Source: Rathayibacter sp. VKM Ac-2754 (GTDB lineage Bacteria > Actinomycetota > Actinomycetes > Actinomycetales > Microbacteriaceae). From it: 64,000 nt of DNA. A program made the translations under genes and the position numbers. The stretch's first letter is position 1. Each line of letters begins with the position of its first letter. Below are positions 9,606 through 47,399 of the stretch, piece by piece. The stretch is taken from the NCBI RefSeq assembly GCF_009807095.1, contig NZ_WUCC01000002.1, positions 62,001 to 126,000 of the forward strand, in the 5' to 3' direction. The notes under the pieces are model-generated. The model made no database searches, was not told the origin of the DNA, and worked only from the letters and a program-made list of their open reading frames with translations.

Positions 9606-9722
9606 GTCGGCTTCCGCGGGTGGTCGCGGTGGGGGAGCGTGTCGCGTTCCGGGTACGACGATCCGCTGTCACGCGGATCGCCGGTGACCCTGCGGAGGGG
9701 TCGACTGGATTGCAGGCCTCCG
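9606..9722 (+). repeat. Interspersed ~116-bp repeat, copy A
   Basis: Aligns over nearly its full length (117 versus 115 nt) with 47285-47399. Shared blocks include GTCGGCTTCC, TGGTCGCG, a central hairpin and TGCA(G/A)GCCTCCG at the end. The hairpin here is CGATCCGC (9659-9666), a 6-nt loop, then GCGGATCG (9673-9680). The other copy has the same stem with a compensated C-G to T-A change. Confidence 0.7.
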
Positions 9723-9807
9723 TTCTCGGCTCGGCAGCTGCGCTGCGAGGCCGCTCGGCGCGCATGCCGGGGACAACGTGCGTACCCGCTCGCCGCGCGC
9801 GAGCATG

Positions 9808-9845
9808 CTGGTCGAGCAGCCGCCGGAGGCGGCGTATCGGGACCC
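9808..9845 (+). repeat. Short palindromic repeat A1
   Basis: Begins CTGGTCGAGCAG, has a central GCCGCC/GGCGGC stem, and ends GTATCGGGACCC. Same family as 9909-9945, 47414-47454 and 47524-47563. Confidence 0.7.
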
Positions 9846-9908
9846 ACCACCGTCAGTCGTGCGGGAAGCCACGTGCCTGCTCGCCTGCACGTGTCGCTCG
9901 CACGCATG

Positions 9909-9945
9909 CTGGTCGAGTAGCCGCCGAAGGCGGCGTATCGAGACC
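9909..9945 (+). repeat. Short palindromic repeat A2
   Basis: Begins CTGGTCGAGTAG, has GCCGCC-gaa-GGCGGC as its core, and ends GTATCGAGACC. It is 101 bp after A1 in the same orientation; both are preceded by GCATG. Confidence 0.7.
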
Positions 9946-10063
9946 GATCTCCGTACGGGCATCGGTCTCCTGTGGGTGCTGCTGGTGCCGCCGCCGCCAG
10001 GGGCATGACGACGCCCGCGTCGTCCCCGGAGGCGCCGTGTCCGGGGGTGCGTCGGGCCCGCGC

Positions 10064-10069
10064 TAGCGT
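10064..10069 (+). promoter_or_regulatory. -10 box (TAGCGT), leaderless start of the Ppx/GppA gene
   Basis: TAGCGT ends 6 nt before the ATG at 10076 and there is no ribosome-binding site, so transcription probably begins at or next to the start codon. Confidence 0.5.
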
Positions 10070-10075
10070 GGGCGC

Positions 10076-44119: not shown

Positions 44120-45127
44120 GTGTCCGTCAAGATCGGCATCAACGGCTTCGGCCGTATCGGCCGTAACTTCCTCCGTGCGGCCCTCGCCAAGGGCAGCGAC
44201 CTCGAGATCGTCGCGGTCAACGACCTCACCGACAACAAGGCGCTCGCGCACCTCCTGAAGTACGACTCCATCACCGGACGCCTCGACGCGACGGTGGAGC
44301 TCGACGGCGACAAGATCGTCGTCAACGGCAAGCCGATCATCGTCCTCGAGGAGCGCGACCCCGCGAACCTCCCCTGGGGCGAGCTGGGCGTCGATGTCGT
44401 CATCGAGTCGACCGGCCGCTTCACCAAGTCGGAGGATGCGCGCAAGCACATCACCGCCGGCGCCAAGAAGGTCATCGTCTCGGCACCCGCCTCGGGCAGC
44501 GACGTCGCGACCATCGTCCTCGGCGTCAACGAGGGCACCTACGACCCCCAGGTGCACGACATCGTCTCGAACGCGTCCTGCACCACGAACTGCCTCGCGC
44601 CGCTCGCCAAGGTGCTGCTCGACAACTTCGGCATCGAGCGCGGCCTCATGACCACGGTCCACGCCTACACGGCCGACCAGAACCTCCAGGACGGCCCGCA
44701 CAGCGACCTCCGTCGCGCGCGCGCCGCCGCGGTCAACATCATCCCGACCTCGACCGGTGCCGCCAAGGCGCTCGGCCTCGTCATCCCCGAGCTCGTCGGC
44801 AAGCTCGACGGCTACGCACTGCGCGTCCCGGTCCCGACCGGCTCGATCACCGACCTCACCGTCGAGCTGACCACGCCGGCCACCGTCGAGGAGATCAACG
44901 CGGCGTACAAGGCCGCGGCCGAGGGCGACCTCAAGGGCATCCTCAAGTACACCGAGGACCCGATCGTCTCGAGCGACATCGTGACCGACCCGCACTCGTC
45001 GATCTTCGACTCCGGCCTCACCAAGGTCATCGGCAACCAGGTCAAGGTCGCCTCCTGGTACGACAACGAGTGGGGATACTCCAACCGCCTCGTCGACGTC
45101 GCCGAGCTCGTCGCCGGCAAGCTCTAG
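44120..45127 (+). CDS. gap: Glyceraldehyde-3-phosphate dehydrogenase, type I
   Basis: NAD-dependent oxidation of glyceraldehyde 3-phosphate to 1,3-bisphosphoglycerate. The 335 residues begin with the Rossmann motif [17 protein letters not shown], and the catalytic cysteine Cys154 lies in [11 protein letters not shown]; the base His is in the later [14 protein letters not shown] region. The end [14 protein letters not shown] is typical. GTG at 44120 has AGGAG about 8 nt upstream. It leads a gap-pgk-tpiA unit: pgk follows after 11 bp. Confidence 0.97.
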
Positions 45128-45138
45128 GGCTCGCAGCA

Positions 45139-46353
45139 GTGACCTTCCGCACTCTGGACTCACTGGGTGCACTGTCGGGCAAGCGCGTCGTCGTCCGCTG
45201 CGATCTGAACGTCCCCCTGAAGGACGGTTCGATCACGGACGACGGCCGCGTGCGCGCGTCCGTCCCCACGCTCCAGCGGCTCGTCGCCGAGGGTGCCCGA
45301 GTCGTGGTCGTGAGCCACCTCGGGCGCCCCGACGGGGAGCCCGACCCGAAGTACAGCCTCGCGCCGGTCGCGAAGCGACTCGGTGAGCTCCTCGACGCCC
45401 CCGTGGCGTTCGCCGGCGACACTGTCGGCGACGAGGCCTCCTCCGCGGTCGAGGCCCTCGGCGACGGCGAGATCGTCGTCCTCGAGAACCTGCGCTTCAA
45501 CGCAGCCGAGACCAGCAAGGACGCGGACGAGCGCCGCGCCTTCGCCGAGAAGCTGGCCGCCTTCGGCGACGCCTTCGTCTCGGACGGCTTCGGAGTCGTC
45601 CACCGCAAGCAGGCGAGCGTCTACGAGCTCGCGCAGCTGCTCCCGAGCGCTGCCGGCACTCTGATCGCCGCCGAGCTCGAGGTCCTCGACCGCCTCACCG
45701 AGAAGCCGGAGCGCCCCTACACGGTCGTGCTCGGCGGATCGAAGGTCTCGGACAAGCTCGGCGTGATCGAGCACCTGCTGCCGAGGGTCGACTCGATCCT
45801 CATCGGCGGAGGCATGCTCTTCACCTTCCTCAAGGCCCAGGGCCACGAGGTCGGTTCGAGCCTGCTCGAAGCCGACCAGGTCGACGTCGTGCTCGGCTAC
45901 CTCGCGAAGGCGAAGGAGCTGGGCGTCGAGATCGTCCTGCCGACCGACGTCGTCGTCGCCTCGAAGTTCGGAGCCGACGCGGAGCACGAGGTCGCTGCGG
46001 CCGACCTCATCGAGGGCACCCCGTTCGGAGCGAGCGGACTGGGCCTCGACATCGGCCCGGACACTGCGAAGCGCTTCGCCGAGATCGTCGCTGCGTCGAA
46101 GACGGTGTTCTGGAACGGCCCCATGGGCGTCTTCGAGCTCGAGCCGTTTGCGGCGGGCACGAAGGCCGTCGCCCAGGCCCTCACCGAGGTCGACGGACTC
46201 AGCGTCGTCGGCGGAGGCGATTCGGCCGCGGCAGTGCGCGCCCTCGGCTTCGAGGACGGGCAGTTCGGCCACATCTCGACGGGAGGCGGCGCGAGCCTCG
46301 AATTCCTCGAGGGCAAGCGACTCCCCGGACTGGAGGTCCTCGGATGGCAGTAG
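45139..46353 (+). CDS. pgk: Phosphoglycerate kinase
   Basis: Transfers phosphate from 1,3-bisphosphoglycerate to ADP. The 404 residues show the substrate-binding [15 protein letters not shown] near 17-31, [21 protein letters not shown], the hinge and nucleotide domain with [19 protein letters not shown], and the C-terminal [11 protein letters not shown] and [18 protein letters not shown] at 45139 gives a start at [17 protein letters not shown] about 12 nt upstream is a weak ribosome-binding site, so translation may be helped by coupling to gap. tpiA begins 10 bp before its end. Confidence 0.96.
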
Positions 46354-47162
46354 ACAGCACGGGAGGAGCTCCCTCCTCCCTCGGGCGGACGCCGCTCATC
46401 GCGGGCAACTGGAAGATGAACCTGGACCACCTCCAGGCCATCGCCTTCGTGCAGAAGCTCGCGTGGAGCCTGAAGGACGCGAATCACGACTTCGACGGTG
46501 TCGAGGTCGCAGTGTTCCCGCCCTTCACCGACCTCCGCCCGGTGCAGATCCTCGTCGACTCCGACAAGCTGCCGCTCAAGTACGGCGCGCAGGACCTGTC
46601 GAAGTTCGACAGCGGGGCCTACACCGGTGAGATCTCGGGTCAGTTCCTGAAGCAGCTCGACTGCGACTACGTGATCGTCGGGCACTCGGAGCGTCGCACG
46701 CTCCACGCCGAGACGGACGCGGACATCGCGGCGAAGTCGGCTGCGGCGATCAAGCACGGCGTCGCACCGGTCATCTGCGTCGGAGAGACCGCCGAGGACC
46801 TCGAGAAGCACGGCCCGTCGGCCGTGCCCGTCGCGCAGCTGAAGGAGGCCCTCACCGGCCTGCCCGCGGACGCCGACCTCGTCGTCGCCTACGAGCCGGT
46901 CTGGGCCATCGGCTCCGGCCAGGCCGCCACGCCCGAGCAGGCCCAGCAGGTCTGCAAGGCGCTCCGCGACGTCGTCTCCGACATCCTCGGAGCCGACACC
47001 GCGGCGAAGACACGCATCCTCTACGGCGGCTCCGTGAAGTCCGGCAACATCGCCGGCTTCATGCGCGAACCCGACGTCGACGGCGCCCTCGTCGGAGGCG
47101 CCAGCCTCCAGGTCGACGAGTTCGCAGCGATCGCCCGGTTCCGCAATCACGTAGGCGTCTAG
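46344..47162 (+). CDS. tpiA: Triosephosphate isomerase
   Basis: Interconverts glyceraldehyde 3-phosphate and dihydroxyacetone phosphate. The 272 residues show [13 protein letters not shown] (Asn and Lys of the active site, near 18-30), [15 protein letters not shown] with catalytic His, the catalytic Glu in [11 protein letters not shown], and the phosphate loop [11 protein letters not shown]. About 15 N-terminal residues ([15 protein letters not shown]) precede the conserved core. The ATG overlaps the end of pgk by 10 bp. A very strong terminator follows. Confidence 0.97.
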
Positions 47163-47173
47163 CGCTCTGAATC

Positions 47174-47205
47174 TGAAGGGGTGGGCCTCGCGGCCCACCC
47201 CTTCA
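47174..47205 (+). terminator. Terminator of gap-pgk-tpiA
   Basis: TGAAGGGGTGGGCC (47174-47187) pairs perfectly over 14 bp with GGCCCACCCCTTCA (47192-47205), loop TCGC. It starts 11 nt after the tpiA stop and is followed by a pyrimidine-rich TCGTCTCTGCTGCT. Confidence 0.9.
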
Positions 47206-47284
47206 GTCGTCTCTGCTGCTCATGTACCGAGCGCAGATTGCGGAGTGCTGTTCTTCCACGGCGCTCTTCGCGCGGCGCGGCGCA

Positions 47285-47399
47285 GTCGGCTTCCATGCAT
47301 GGTCGCGTCCCGAAGAGCTTCGTGCGTCCGGCTACGCCGATTCGCTCGCACGCGAATCGCCGGTTCGCCTTGTCCCGAGCAGCGATCTGCAAGCCTCCG
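47285..47399 (+). repeat. Interspersed ~116-bp repeat, copy B
   Basis: Partner of 9606-9722. The hairpin is CGATTCGC (47338-47345), 6-nt loop, GCGAATCG (47352-47359). Compared with copy A, the C-G pair is replaced by T-A on both arms, which keeps the stem. Confidence 0.7.

What the first reader, a model, noticed from the sequence alone, without database searches (positions are those of the whole stretch)
9606..47399. A ~116-bp repeat at two loci 38 kb apart with a compensatory change in its hairpin
Copy A (9606-9722, 117 nt) and copy B (47285-47399, 115 nt) align from GTCGGCTTCC to TGCA(G/A)GCCTCCG. The central 8-bp stem is CGATCCGC/GCGGATCG in A and CGATTCGC/GCGAATCG in B: one C-G pair became T-A on both arms, which suggests the folded form is under selection. 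Both copies lie shortly (39 and 80 bp) after a strong terminator of a glycolytic gene and are followed by two short palindromic repeats. The shared layout suggests one composite non-coding module that spread or is maintained. I cannot tell whether it is known.
Basis: seen in the sequence. Interest (0 to 1): 0.7.

Follow-up and report, generated by a model that had tools for sequence, protein, structure and literature searches.

The report
Structured RNA-like repeat behind genes
The repeat is real and belongs to a family of folded, RNA-like elements, 9 to 71 per genome in the Rathayibacter bacteria examined, that mostly sit behind the ends of genes and whose stems keep pairing even when their letters change, so their shape seems to be kept for a reason still unknown.

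Summary
Confirmed and extended. The two copies belong to a large structured family. All 15 held Rathayibacter genomes carry 9-71 (620 in all at E<=1e-4). A shorter core variant occurs in 6 genomes of two other Microbacteriaceae genera; an order-wide draw found only the own genome (1 of 396). On 64 own copies 383 cells show double-sided changes against 116.5 shuffled; score 0.516 against 0.148 shuffled and at most 0.091 slid. Of 51 arrays, 40 follow a same-strand gene end against 3 in the mirror test; in other genera the contrast is weaker, 34 against 17 of 40. Six orthologous genes carry it in different genera. No Rfam family fits it in the scans run. Best reading: an RNA element at transcript 3' ends affecting 3'-end fate (mechanism inferred, 0.5). 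A 2018 paper mentions an unspecified ~75-nt Rathayibacter palindromic repeat that may be part of it.

The parts
9566..9694 (+). Copy A, full unit (P1 + core + P3), behind pyruvate kinase and its terminator-like hairpin
   Evidence: model R1, 70.9 bits; R2 40.4 bits
9569..9601 (+). Copy A hairpin P1: CGACGGGC / GCCCGTCG with a 17-nt C-rich loop
   Evidence: sequence; stem covaries between species at this same locus
9602..9646 (+). Copy A conserved core CGCGGTCGGC...GGGAGCG...TCGCG (proposed helix P2)
   Evidence: alignments A2, A5
9651..9690 (+).
   Evidence: sequence; P3 covariation
9710..9722 (+). Copy A 3' box TTGCAGGCCTCCG
   Evidence: TCTGCA within 45 nt after the last unit in 12 of 51 arrays against 3 of 153 control stretches; this copy has the variant TTGCAG and is not among the 12
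47253..47373 (+). Copy B, full unit, behind triosephosphate isomerase and its terminator-like hairpin
   Evidence: model R1, 114.3 bits; R2 69.2 bits
47256..47280 (+). Copy B hairpin P1, loop TCTTCGC (two mismatches in the stem)
   Evidence: sequence, alignment A3
47330..47369 (+). Copy B hairpin P3, CGATTCGC/GCGAATCG
   Evidence: sequence, covariation
24794..24914 (-).
   Evidence: model R1, 120.3 bits; R2 83.5 bits; sequence, gene
9536..9566 (+). Terminator-like hairpin of pyruvate kinase, directly before copy A (not part of the element)
   Evidence: sequence
47173..47206 (+). Terminator-like hairpin of triosephosphate isomerase, before copy B (not part of the element)
   Evidence: sequence

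Best explanation
The repeat is a structured RNA element at the 3' end of transcripts. SHOWN: it is a family of about 120-nt units, single or in tandem, with hairpins P1 and P3 maintained by compensatory change, mostly placed downstream of genes in the gene's own orientation, with P1 often starting about 8 nt after the stop codon. INFERRED: it is transcribed as the tail of the message (in one case of a tRNA), folds into a compact set of helices, and there controls the fate of the transcript's 3' end: a barrier to 3'-to-5' exonucleases and a marker of the mature end, possibly also slowing terminating ribosomes as REP hairpins close to a stop codon are reported to do in E. coli. Tandem copies would strengthen the barrier.
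For: Covariation on 64 own copies: score 0.516 against 0.148 shuffled and at most 0.091 slid; 24 of 31 pairs have double-sided changes. A sequence-only MAFFT alignment of 13 copies agrees, as do the single orthologous pyruvate kinase locus (44 double-changed cells against 11.8 shuffled) and other genera (54 against 19.5). Orientation: 40 of 51 arrays follow a same-strand gene end against 3 of 51 mirrored; neighbouring arrays within 1.5 kb are convergent 8:0 and 4:0 in two relatives. Register: gap of exactly 5 nt from stop codon to model start (8 nt to P1) in 9 of 40 own arrays and 16 of 34 other-genus copies. One copy lies between tRNA-Ile and tRNA-Ala on the same strand, so the link may be to transcripts rather than to translation alone. 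Six own genes (rpsT, def, PDH E2, a winged-helix regulator, a NarL-type regulator, ndk) match element-bearing genes of other genera (8 of 34 proteins hit); at the E2 locus the stems differ between species but still fold.
Against: No transcript data were available. In 16 of 40 arrays the element starts more than 15 nt after the stop codon, in 14 of them with another hairpin soon after the stop, so those copies may be reached only by read-through. The copy between two tRNAs argues against an obligatory terminator. The strand test is mixed: G-U pairs favour the gene-sense strand in P2 (84 G-U against 14 A-C cells) but not in P3 (5 against 33). P2 rests largely on pairs that hardly vary, and RNAalifold on the 46-copy alignment predicted P3 but neither P1 nor P2, where the two P1 loop types align poorly. 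Single-copy folding energies are no better than shuffles for most of the seven sequences tried (z from -2.0 to +0.9). In the other genera the orientation contrast is weaker: 34 of 40 against 17 of 40 mirrored. For 11 of 51 own arrays no same-strand gene end was called. Copies in G002, G004 and G009 have a weak or rearranged P1.
Confidence: 0.5

Rival explanations
1. A non-autonomous mobile element (MITE- or retro-like) whose folded form is needed for its mobility and which prefers gene ends or terminator hairpins; it has no function for the host.
For: Copy number varies from 9 to 71 between species; tandem arrays; a fixed register after stop codons or hairpins could be an insertion preference; P1 is nearly uniform among copies of two other genera; a 3' box ends 12 of 51 arrays.
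Against: Present at the pyruvate kinase locus in 11 of 15 species and at six orthologous genes across genera, with stems rewritten but still paired, which fits long-term maintenance in place; copy B finds no phage match and the third copy only a 31-nt chance-like plasmid match. An associated enzyme was not looked for.
Confidence: 0.2
2. A family of trans-acting small RNAs whose C-rich P1 loop (UCCYYGC or UCCUCGUUCCUCGUC) pairs with ribosome-binding sites.
For: Many P1 loops contain CCUC or CCCC stretches; multicopy small-RNA families with C-rich loops exist (recalled, no call).
Against: Loop sequence is not conserved in all copies (GAG, ATAATC, CCGAGGGC and others); 9 of the 40 own arrays with a called upstream gene start exactly 5 nt after its stop codon, which leaves no room for a promoter behind the gene.
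Confidence: 0.1
3. A DNA-level site (chromosome organisation, supercoiling or single-strand hairpin recognition) with no role for RNA.
For: Arrays are depleted in the origin-proximal quarter of two genomes (5 of 50 and 1 of 38); the strand test is mixed.
Against: Orientation relative to the upstream gene is strong (40 of 51 against 3 of 51) but not relative to the replication fork (27 of 50 and 22 of 38 co-directional).
Confidence: 0.1
4. An ordinary transcription terminator family: P1 is the gene's terminator hairpin and the rest is accessory.
For: P1 is the first hairpin after the stop codon in the close class; a hairpin of 7 bp or more soon after the stop is also common at control gene ends (18 of 24; element-bearing ends 32 of 40).
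Against: P3 lies beyond P1 and covaries on its own; 16 of 40 arrays lie further off, most of them with another hairpin before them; one copy lies inside a tRNA pair.
Confidence: 0.1

Closest known systems
REP / BIME elements of enterobacteria
   Same: Multicopy, extragenic, behind gene ends; in E. coli a subset lies within 15 nt of stop codons and is reported to stall ribosomes, and REPs are reported to protect mRNA (PMC12306157, passages seen)
   Different: REPs are short palindromes (20-40 bp, PMC3733652, start of abstract in the search listing); this is about 120 nt with at least two covarying hairpins, a conserved core, strong orientation and head-to-tail arrays. The genome has a separate REP-like family.
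bcr1-bcr18 intergenic repeats of the Bacillus cereus group
   Same: Group-limited interspersed repeats, about half of the copies found transcribed, some with conserved secondary structure (PMC3446304, passages seen)
   Different: No sequence relation was tested; bcr1-3 are described there as MITE-like, and no register after stop codons is mentioned in the passages seen.
~75-nt palindromic repeat of Rathayibacter (PMC6113626, section 7 read)
   Same: Same genus, 15 to 99 copies per genome, close to the 9-71 found here; may be part of this element
   Different: The section gives no sequence, structure, position or function, so identity cannot be checked here.
Structured RNA families of Rfam 15
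   Same: Conserved secondary structure with covariation
   Different: On the window only a tRNA reaches a gathering score. Permissive scans of three stretches gave no match on the element: weak hits beside copy A, and a sub-threshold mir-5429 match (39.2 bits, cut-off 80, E 3.4e-5) outside the copy in L108.

Membership tests
Structured RNA family (covarying helices) | Compensatory changes beyond shuffled and slid controls | tested here: met
Structured RNA family (covarying helices) | The element is transcribed | not testable with these tools
   no expression data
REP element | Short palindrome of 20-40 bp | tested here: not met
   about 120 nt with several helices
REP element | GTAG or CGTC tag at one end | not tested
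   not scanned for
REP element | Located extragenically, a subset within 15 nt of a stop codon | tested here: met
   24 of 40 arrays within 15 nt
MITE / mobile element | Terminal inverted repeats and target-site duplication | not tested
   the two ends (P1, TCTGCA box) do not look like inverted copies; target duplications were not examined
MITE / mobile element | Found on phages or plasmids | tested here: inconclusive
   copy B against phages: no match; third copy against plasmids: one 31-nt match; one query each
Any Rfam 15 family | Score above the gathering threshold | tested here: not met
   (window, three copies); permissive

The most novel reading that the evidence does not exclude
A previously undescribed class of bacterial 3'-end RNA module, read by a dedicated RNA-binding or processing factor, that ties the mRNA fate of dozens of genes, many of them housekeeping (glycolysis, purine synthesis, ribosomal proteins, DNA polymerase, a tRNA pair), together into one post-transcriptional 3'-UTR regulon in a small group of Microbacteriaceae.
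Probability: 0.2. Interest if true: 0.85.

Novelty: new variant of a known kind. Interest (0 to 1): 0.62.

Why it matters
Bacterial 3' ends are much less explored than 5' leaders (general knowledge). A genus-wide family of folded elements, often in the same register behind stop codons and kept at some of the same genes across genera while the stem letters turn over, gives dozens of natural replicates for asking what a bacterial 3'-UTR structure does, and no Rfam family covers it in the scans run. It also supplies a model for annotating Rathayibacter genomes.

Tried and rejected
Similarity explained by gene remnants: rejected; most copies lie between called genes and covary in structure (for a few copies the crude ORF caller put a long ORF across the site). 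Known Rfam family: no match in the scans run. Repeated pattern hits in Streptomyces sp. NBC_01549 and PH10-H1 are one recurring mobile-element-like end and none of those sites is an R1 hit. The three distant genomes hit by BLAST with copy A (G021, G030, G054) share 26-37 nt only and look like chance. Pseudoknot between the P1 loop and the GGAGGAG stretch of the core: suggested by copies with the long loop, dropped because AGAGCG copies keep similar loops (by eye, not computed). A test whether element-bearing genes lack a T-tract terminator was uninformative (2 of 40 against 0 of 24 control ends). Single-copy folding energy is uninformative at this GC content. Strand-specific wobble test: mixed, not used as support. 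Enrichment of housekeeping genes was not tested against a control set. The family and order searches were draws of 398 and 396 genomes with stricter filters, and at most 9-12 candidates per genome were scored there, so their per-genome counts are lower bounds.

Rows dropped before counts: one search gave 51 aligned rows, 5 partial or false ones were left out (46 used); A3 and model R1 used 13 of those 46, chosen by me for a short P1 loop; one of 66 own-genome hits (C18:442501, E 0.031) was not fetched, so 65 were placed; A5 holds 64 matches; A6 and model R2 used 27 of the 39 seven-nt-loop own copies listed plus 5 of other genera; for the six other-genus genomes 40 regions were fetched and one leading copy per region was examined for gene ends, out of 51 matches in them.
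Full report
WHAT WAS CHECKED. Copies A and B are in the sequence as described, with the C-G to T-A change on both arms of the central stem. BLAST with one copy does not list the other, so the pair alone would have been weak. Each copy, however, finds further relatives: 5 matches for A at E<=0.001 and 18 for B at E<=1 in the own genome, themselves included. For A, 18 of 60 genomes match (own included), among them 14 of 14 other members of the genus; the other three are short chance-like matches.

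ANATOMY. Some arrays end with a TCTGCA box: 12 of 51 arrays against 3 of 153 control stretches. Units are often in tandem; successive units start 98-136 bp apart in the own genome.

COUNTS. A covariance model from 13 MAFFT-aligned copies (R1) finds 66 hits in the own genome at E<=1, 65 of them at E<=0.003. Three are in the window, at 9566-9694(+), 47253-47373(+) and 24794-24914(-). All 15 held genomes of the genus have hits at E<=1e-4: 63, 51, 16, 24, 63, 49, 36, 71, 46, 26, 44, 33, 30, 59 and 9, in all 620.

COVARIATION. On the MAFFT alignment of 13 copies 88.1% of cells pair against 77.6% shuffled and at most 43.4% slid, with 38 double-changed cells against 11.8. On 64 own-genome copies aligned to the model, 91.9% of cells pair, 383 cells have both sides changed against 116.5 shuffled, and the score is 0.516 against 0.148 shuffled and at most 0.091 slid; all 9 pairs of P1 and 9 of 11 pairs of the main P3 helix have double changes. 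That alignment is fitted to the structure. On the sequence-only alignment of 46 copies RNAalifold predicts P3, with 8 of its 14 predicted pairs double-changed, but neither P1 nor P2; P1 loops of two lengths align poorly there. On the 13-copy alignment it predicts P3, most of P1 and a P2-like helix. At the single pyruvate kinase locus (16 matches from 11 species) 44 cells are double-changed against 11.8. Helix P2 is the least certain: most of its pairs hardly vary.

WIDER RANGE. With R1, 14 of 398 family genomes match at E<=1e-4: 10 Rathayibacter and 4 others. The five loci of these 4 have a shorter version, with P1 and core, an extra inner segment that looks like a hairpin, and no good P3 fit. 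A core model (R2) finds 16 of 398: 10 Rathayibacter, 4 of genus g78 and 2 of genus g74, the last six with 5 to 12 hits each, 12 being the number scored. An order-wide draw gave only the own genome, 1 of 396 at E<=1e-4. In the other genera the core also covaries, 54 double-changed cells against 19.5.

POSITION. For 65 placed own copies in 51 arrays, a same-strand gene ends within 150 nt upstream in 40, while an opposite-strand gene ends within 150 nt downstream in 3. The gap from stop codon to model start is exactly 5 nt in 9 of 40; 24 of 40 lie within 15 nt and 16 of 40 further off, in 14 of those with a hairpin of 7 bp or more found soon after the stop. The next gene downstream is convergent in 24, co-directional in 14 and not found in 2 of 40, at a median distance of 397 nt. 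In the other genera 34 of 40 copies have the same-strand gene and 17 of 40 the mirrored one, a weaker contrast, with the 5-nt gap in 16 of 34. One own copy lies between tRNA-Ile and tRNA-Ala on the same strand. Neighbouring arrays within 1.5 kb are convergent in 8 and divergent in 0 cases in G003, 4 and 0 in G005.

GENES. The 40 upstream genes include pyruvate kinase, triosephosphate isomerase, polyphosphate glucokinase, nucleoside-diphosphate kinase, acetate kinase, purH, purD, glmM, 30S proteins S14 and S20, a PDH-type E2, a phosphogluconate dehydrogenase, a fumarase/aspartase, glycerol kinase, peptide deformylase, DAHP synthase, DNA polymerase III alpha, fabF and others, some without a family match. 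No control set was annotated, so enrichment for housekeeping genes is an impression. Comparing these with 34 upstream proteins of the other genera, 8 match an own one at 66-88% identity, covering 6 own genes. With roughly 3,600 genes per genome (my assumption) chance would give well under one; if only about 800 core genes could be hosts, one or two.

ORTHOLOGOUS LOCI. The element follows pyruvate kinase in 11 of 15 species, as one to three units. At the E2 gene R2 scores an element in 9 of 13 Rathayibacter loci and in 2 of 4 g78 loci, with a P1-only remnant in a third; G013 had no E2 match, G012 only a partial one, and the two g74 genomes none at E<=1e-60. P1 there reads, for example, GAGCGGAC/GTCCGCTC, GAGCGGAT/ATCCGCTC or GCGCGCCGG/CCGGCGCGC, and GCCCTTT/AAAGGGC in G004, a locus that R2 does not score: different letters, same fold. 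In some species its first arm overlaps the stop codon.

INTERPRETATION. Shape kept while letters change, at the same gene ends, in gene orientation, is what a cis-acting RNA element in a 3' UTR would show. What it does is inferred: protection and definition of the mRNA 3' end is my first choice, with effects on terminating ribosomes possible, since REPs within 15 nt of a stop codon are reported to stall ribosomes in E. coli (PMC12306157, passages seen). Against this stand the copies lying further from the stop codon, the mixed strand test, the weaker orientation contrast in the other genera and the lack of any transcript data.

PRIOR KNOWLEDGE. Search listings with Rathayibacter terms (one search was mostly unrelated eukaryotic RNA papers) and with general terms showed no title or abstract start describing this element; most listed papers were not opened, and the library holds open-licence papers only. 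PMC6113626 (section 7 read) mentions an ~75-nt palindromic repeat in Rathayibacter with 15 to 99 copies and gives no sequence there; it may be a part of this element. Passages of PMC2267715 on stem-loop families showed no Microbacteriaceae genome.

Noticed in passing
window 2658, 9809, 9910, 13051, 20410, 33150, 42514, 47440, 47528: REP-like palindrome beginning TGGTCGAGTAG, 9 matches with up to 1 mismatch against 0.9 expected; similar sequences stand behind copies in several other Rathayibacter genomes.
   Followed up: partly
window 47609-47705: An inverted repeat with 29-bp arms (47609-47637 and 47677-47705), complementary by inspection, downstream of copy B.
   Followed up: no
L109, L092, L099, L114, L115 upstream of the element: Long inverted repeats at gene ends that include the stop codon in one arm or the loop, so that the 3' half of the hairpin is a reverse copy of the gene's last codons (by inspection).
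   Followed up: no
G003 and G005 main contigs: Arrays are scarce in the origin-proximal quarter (5 of 50 and 1 of 38).
   Followed up: partly
L087 1424-1744: Element between tRNA-Ile and tRNA-Ala genes on the same strand.
   Followed up: partly
L155, L174, L178, L179, L211, L216, L219, L225, L185, L202, L210, L218: A recurrent sequence end in two Streptomyces genomes, looking like a mobile-element boundary, that happens to match the search pattern.
   Followed up: no
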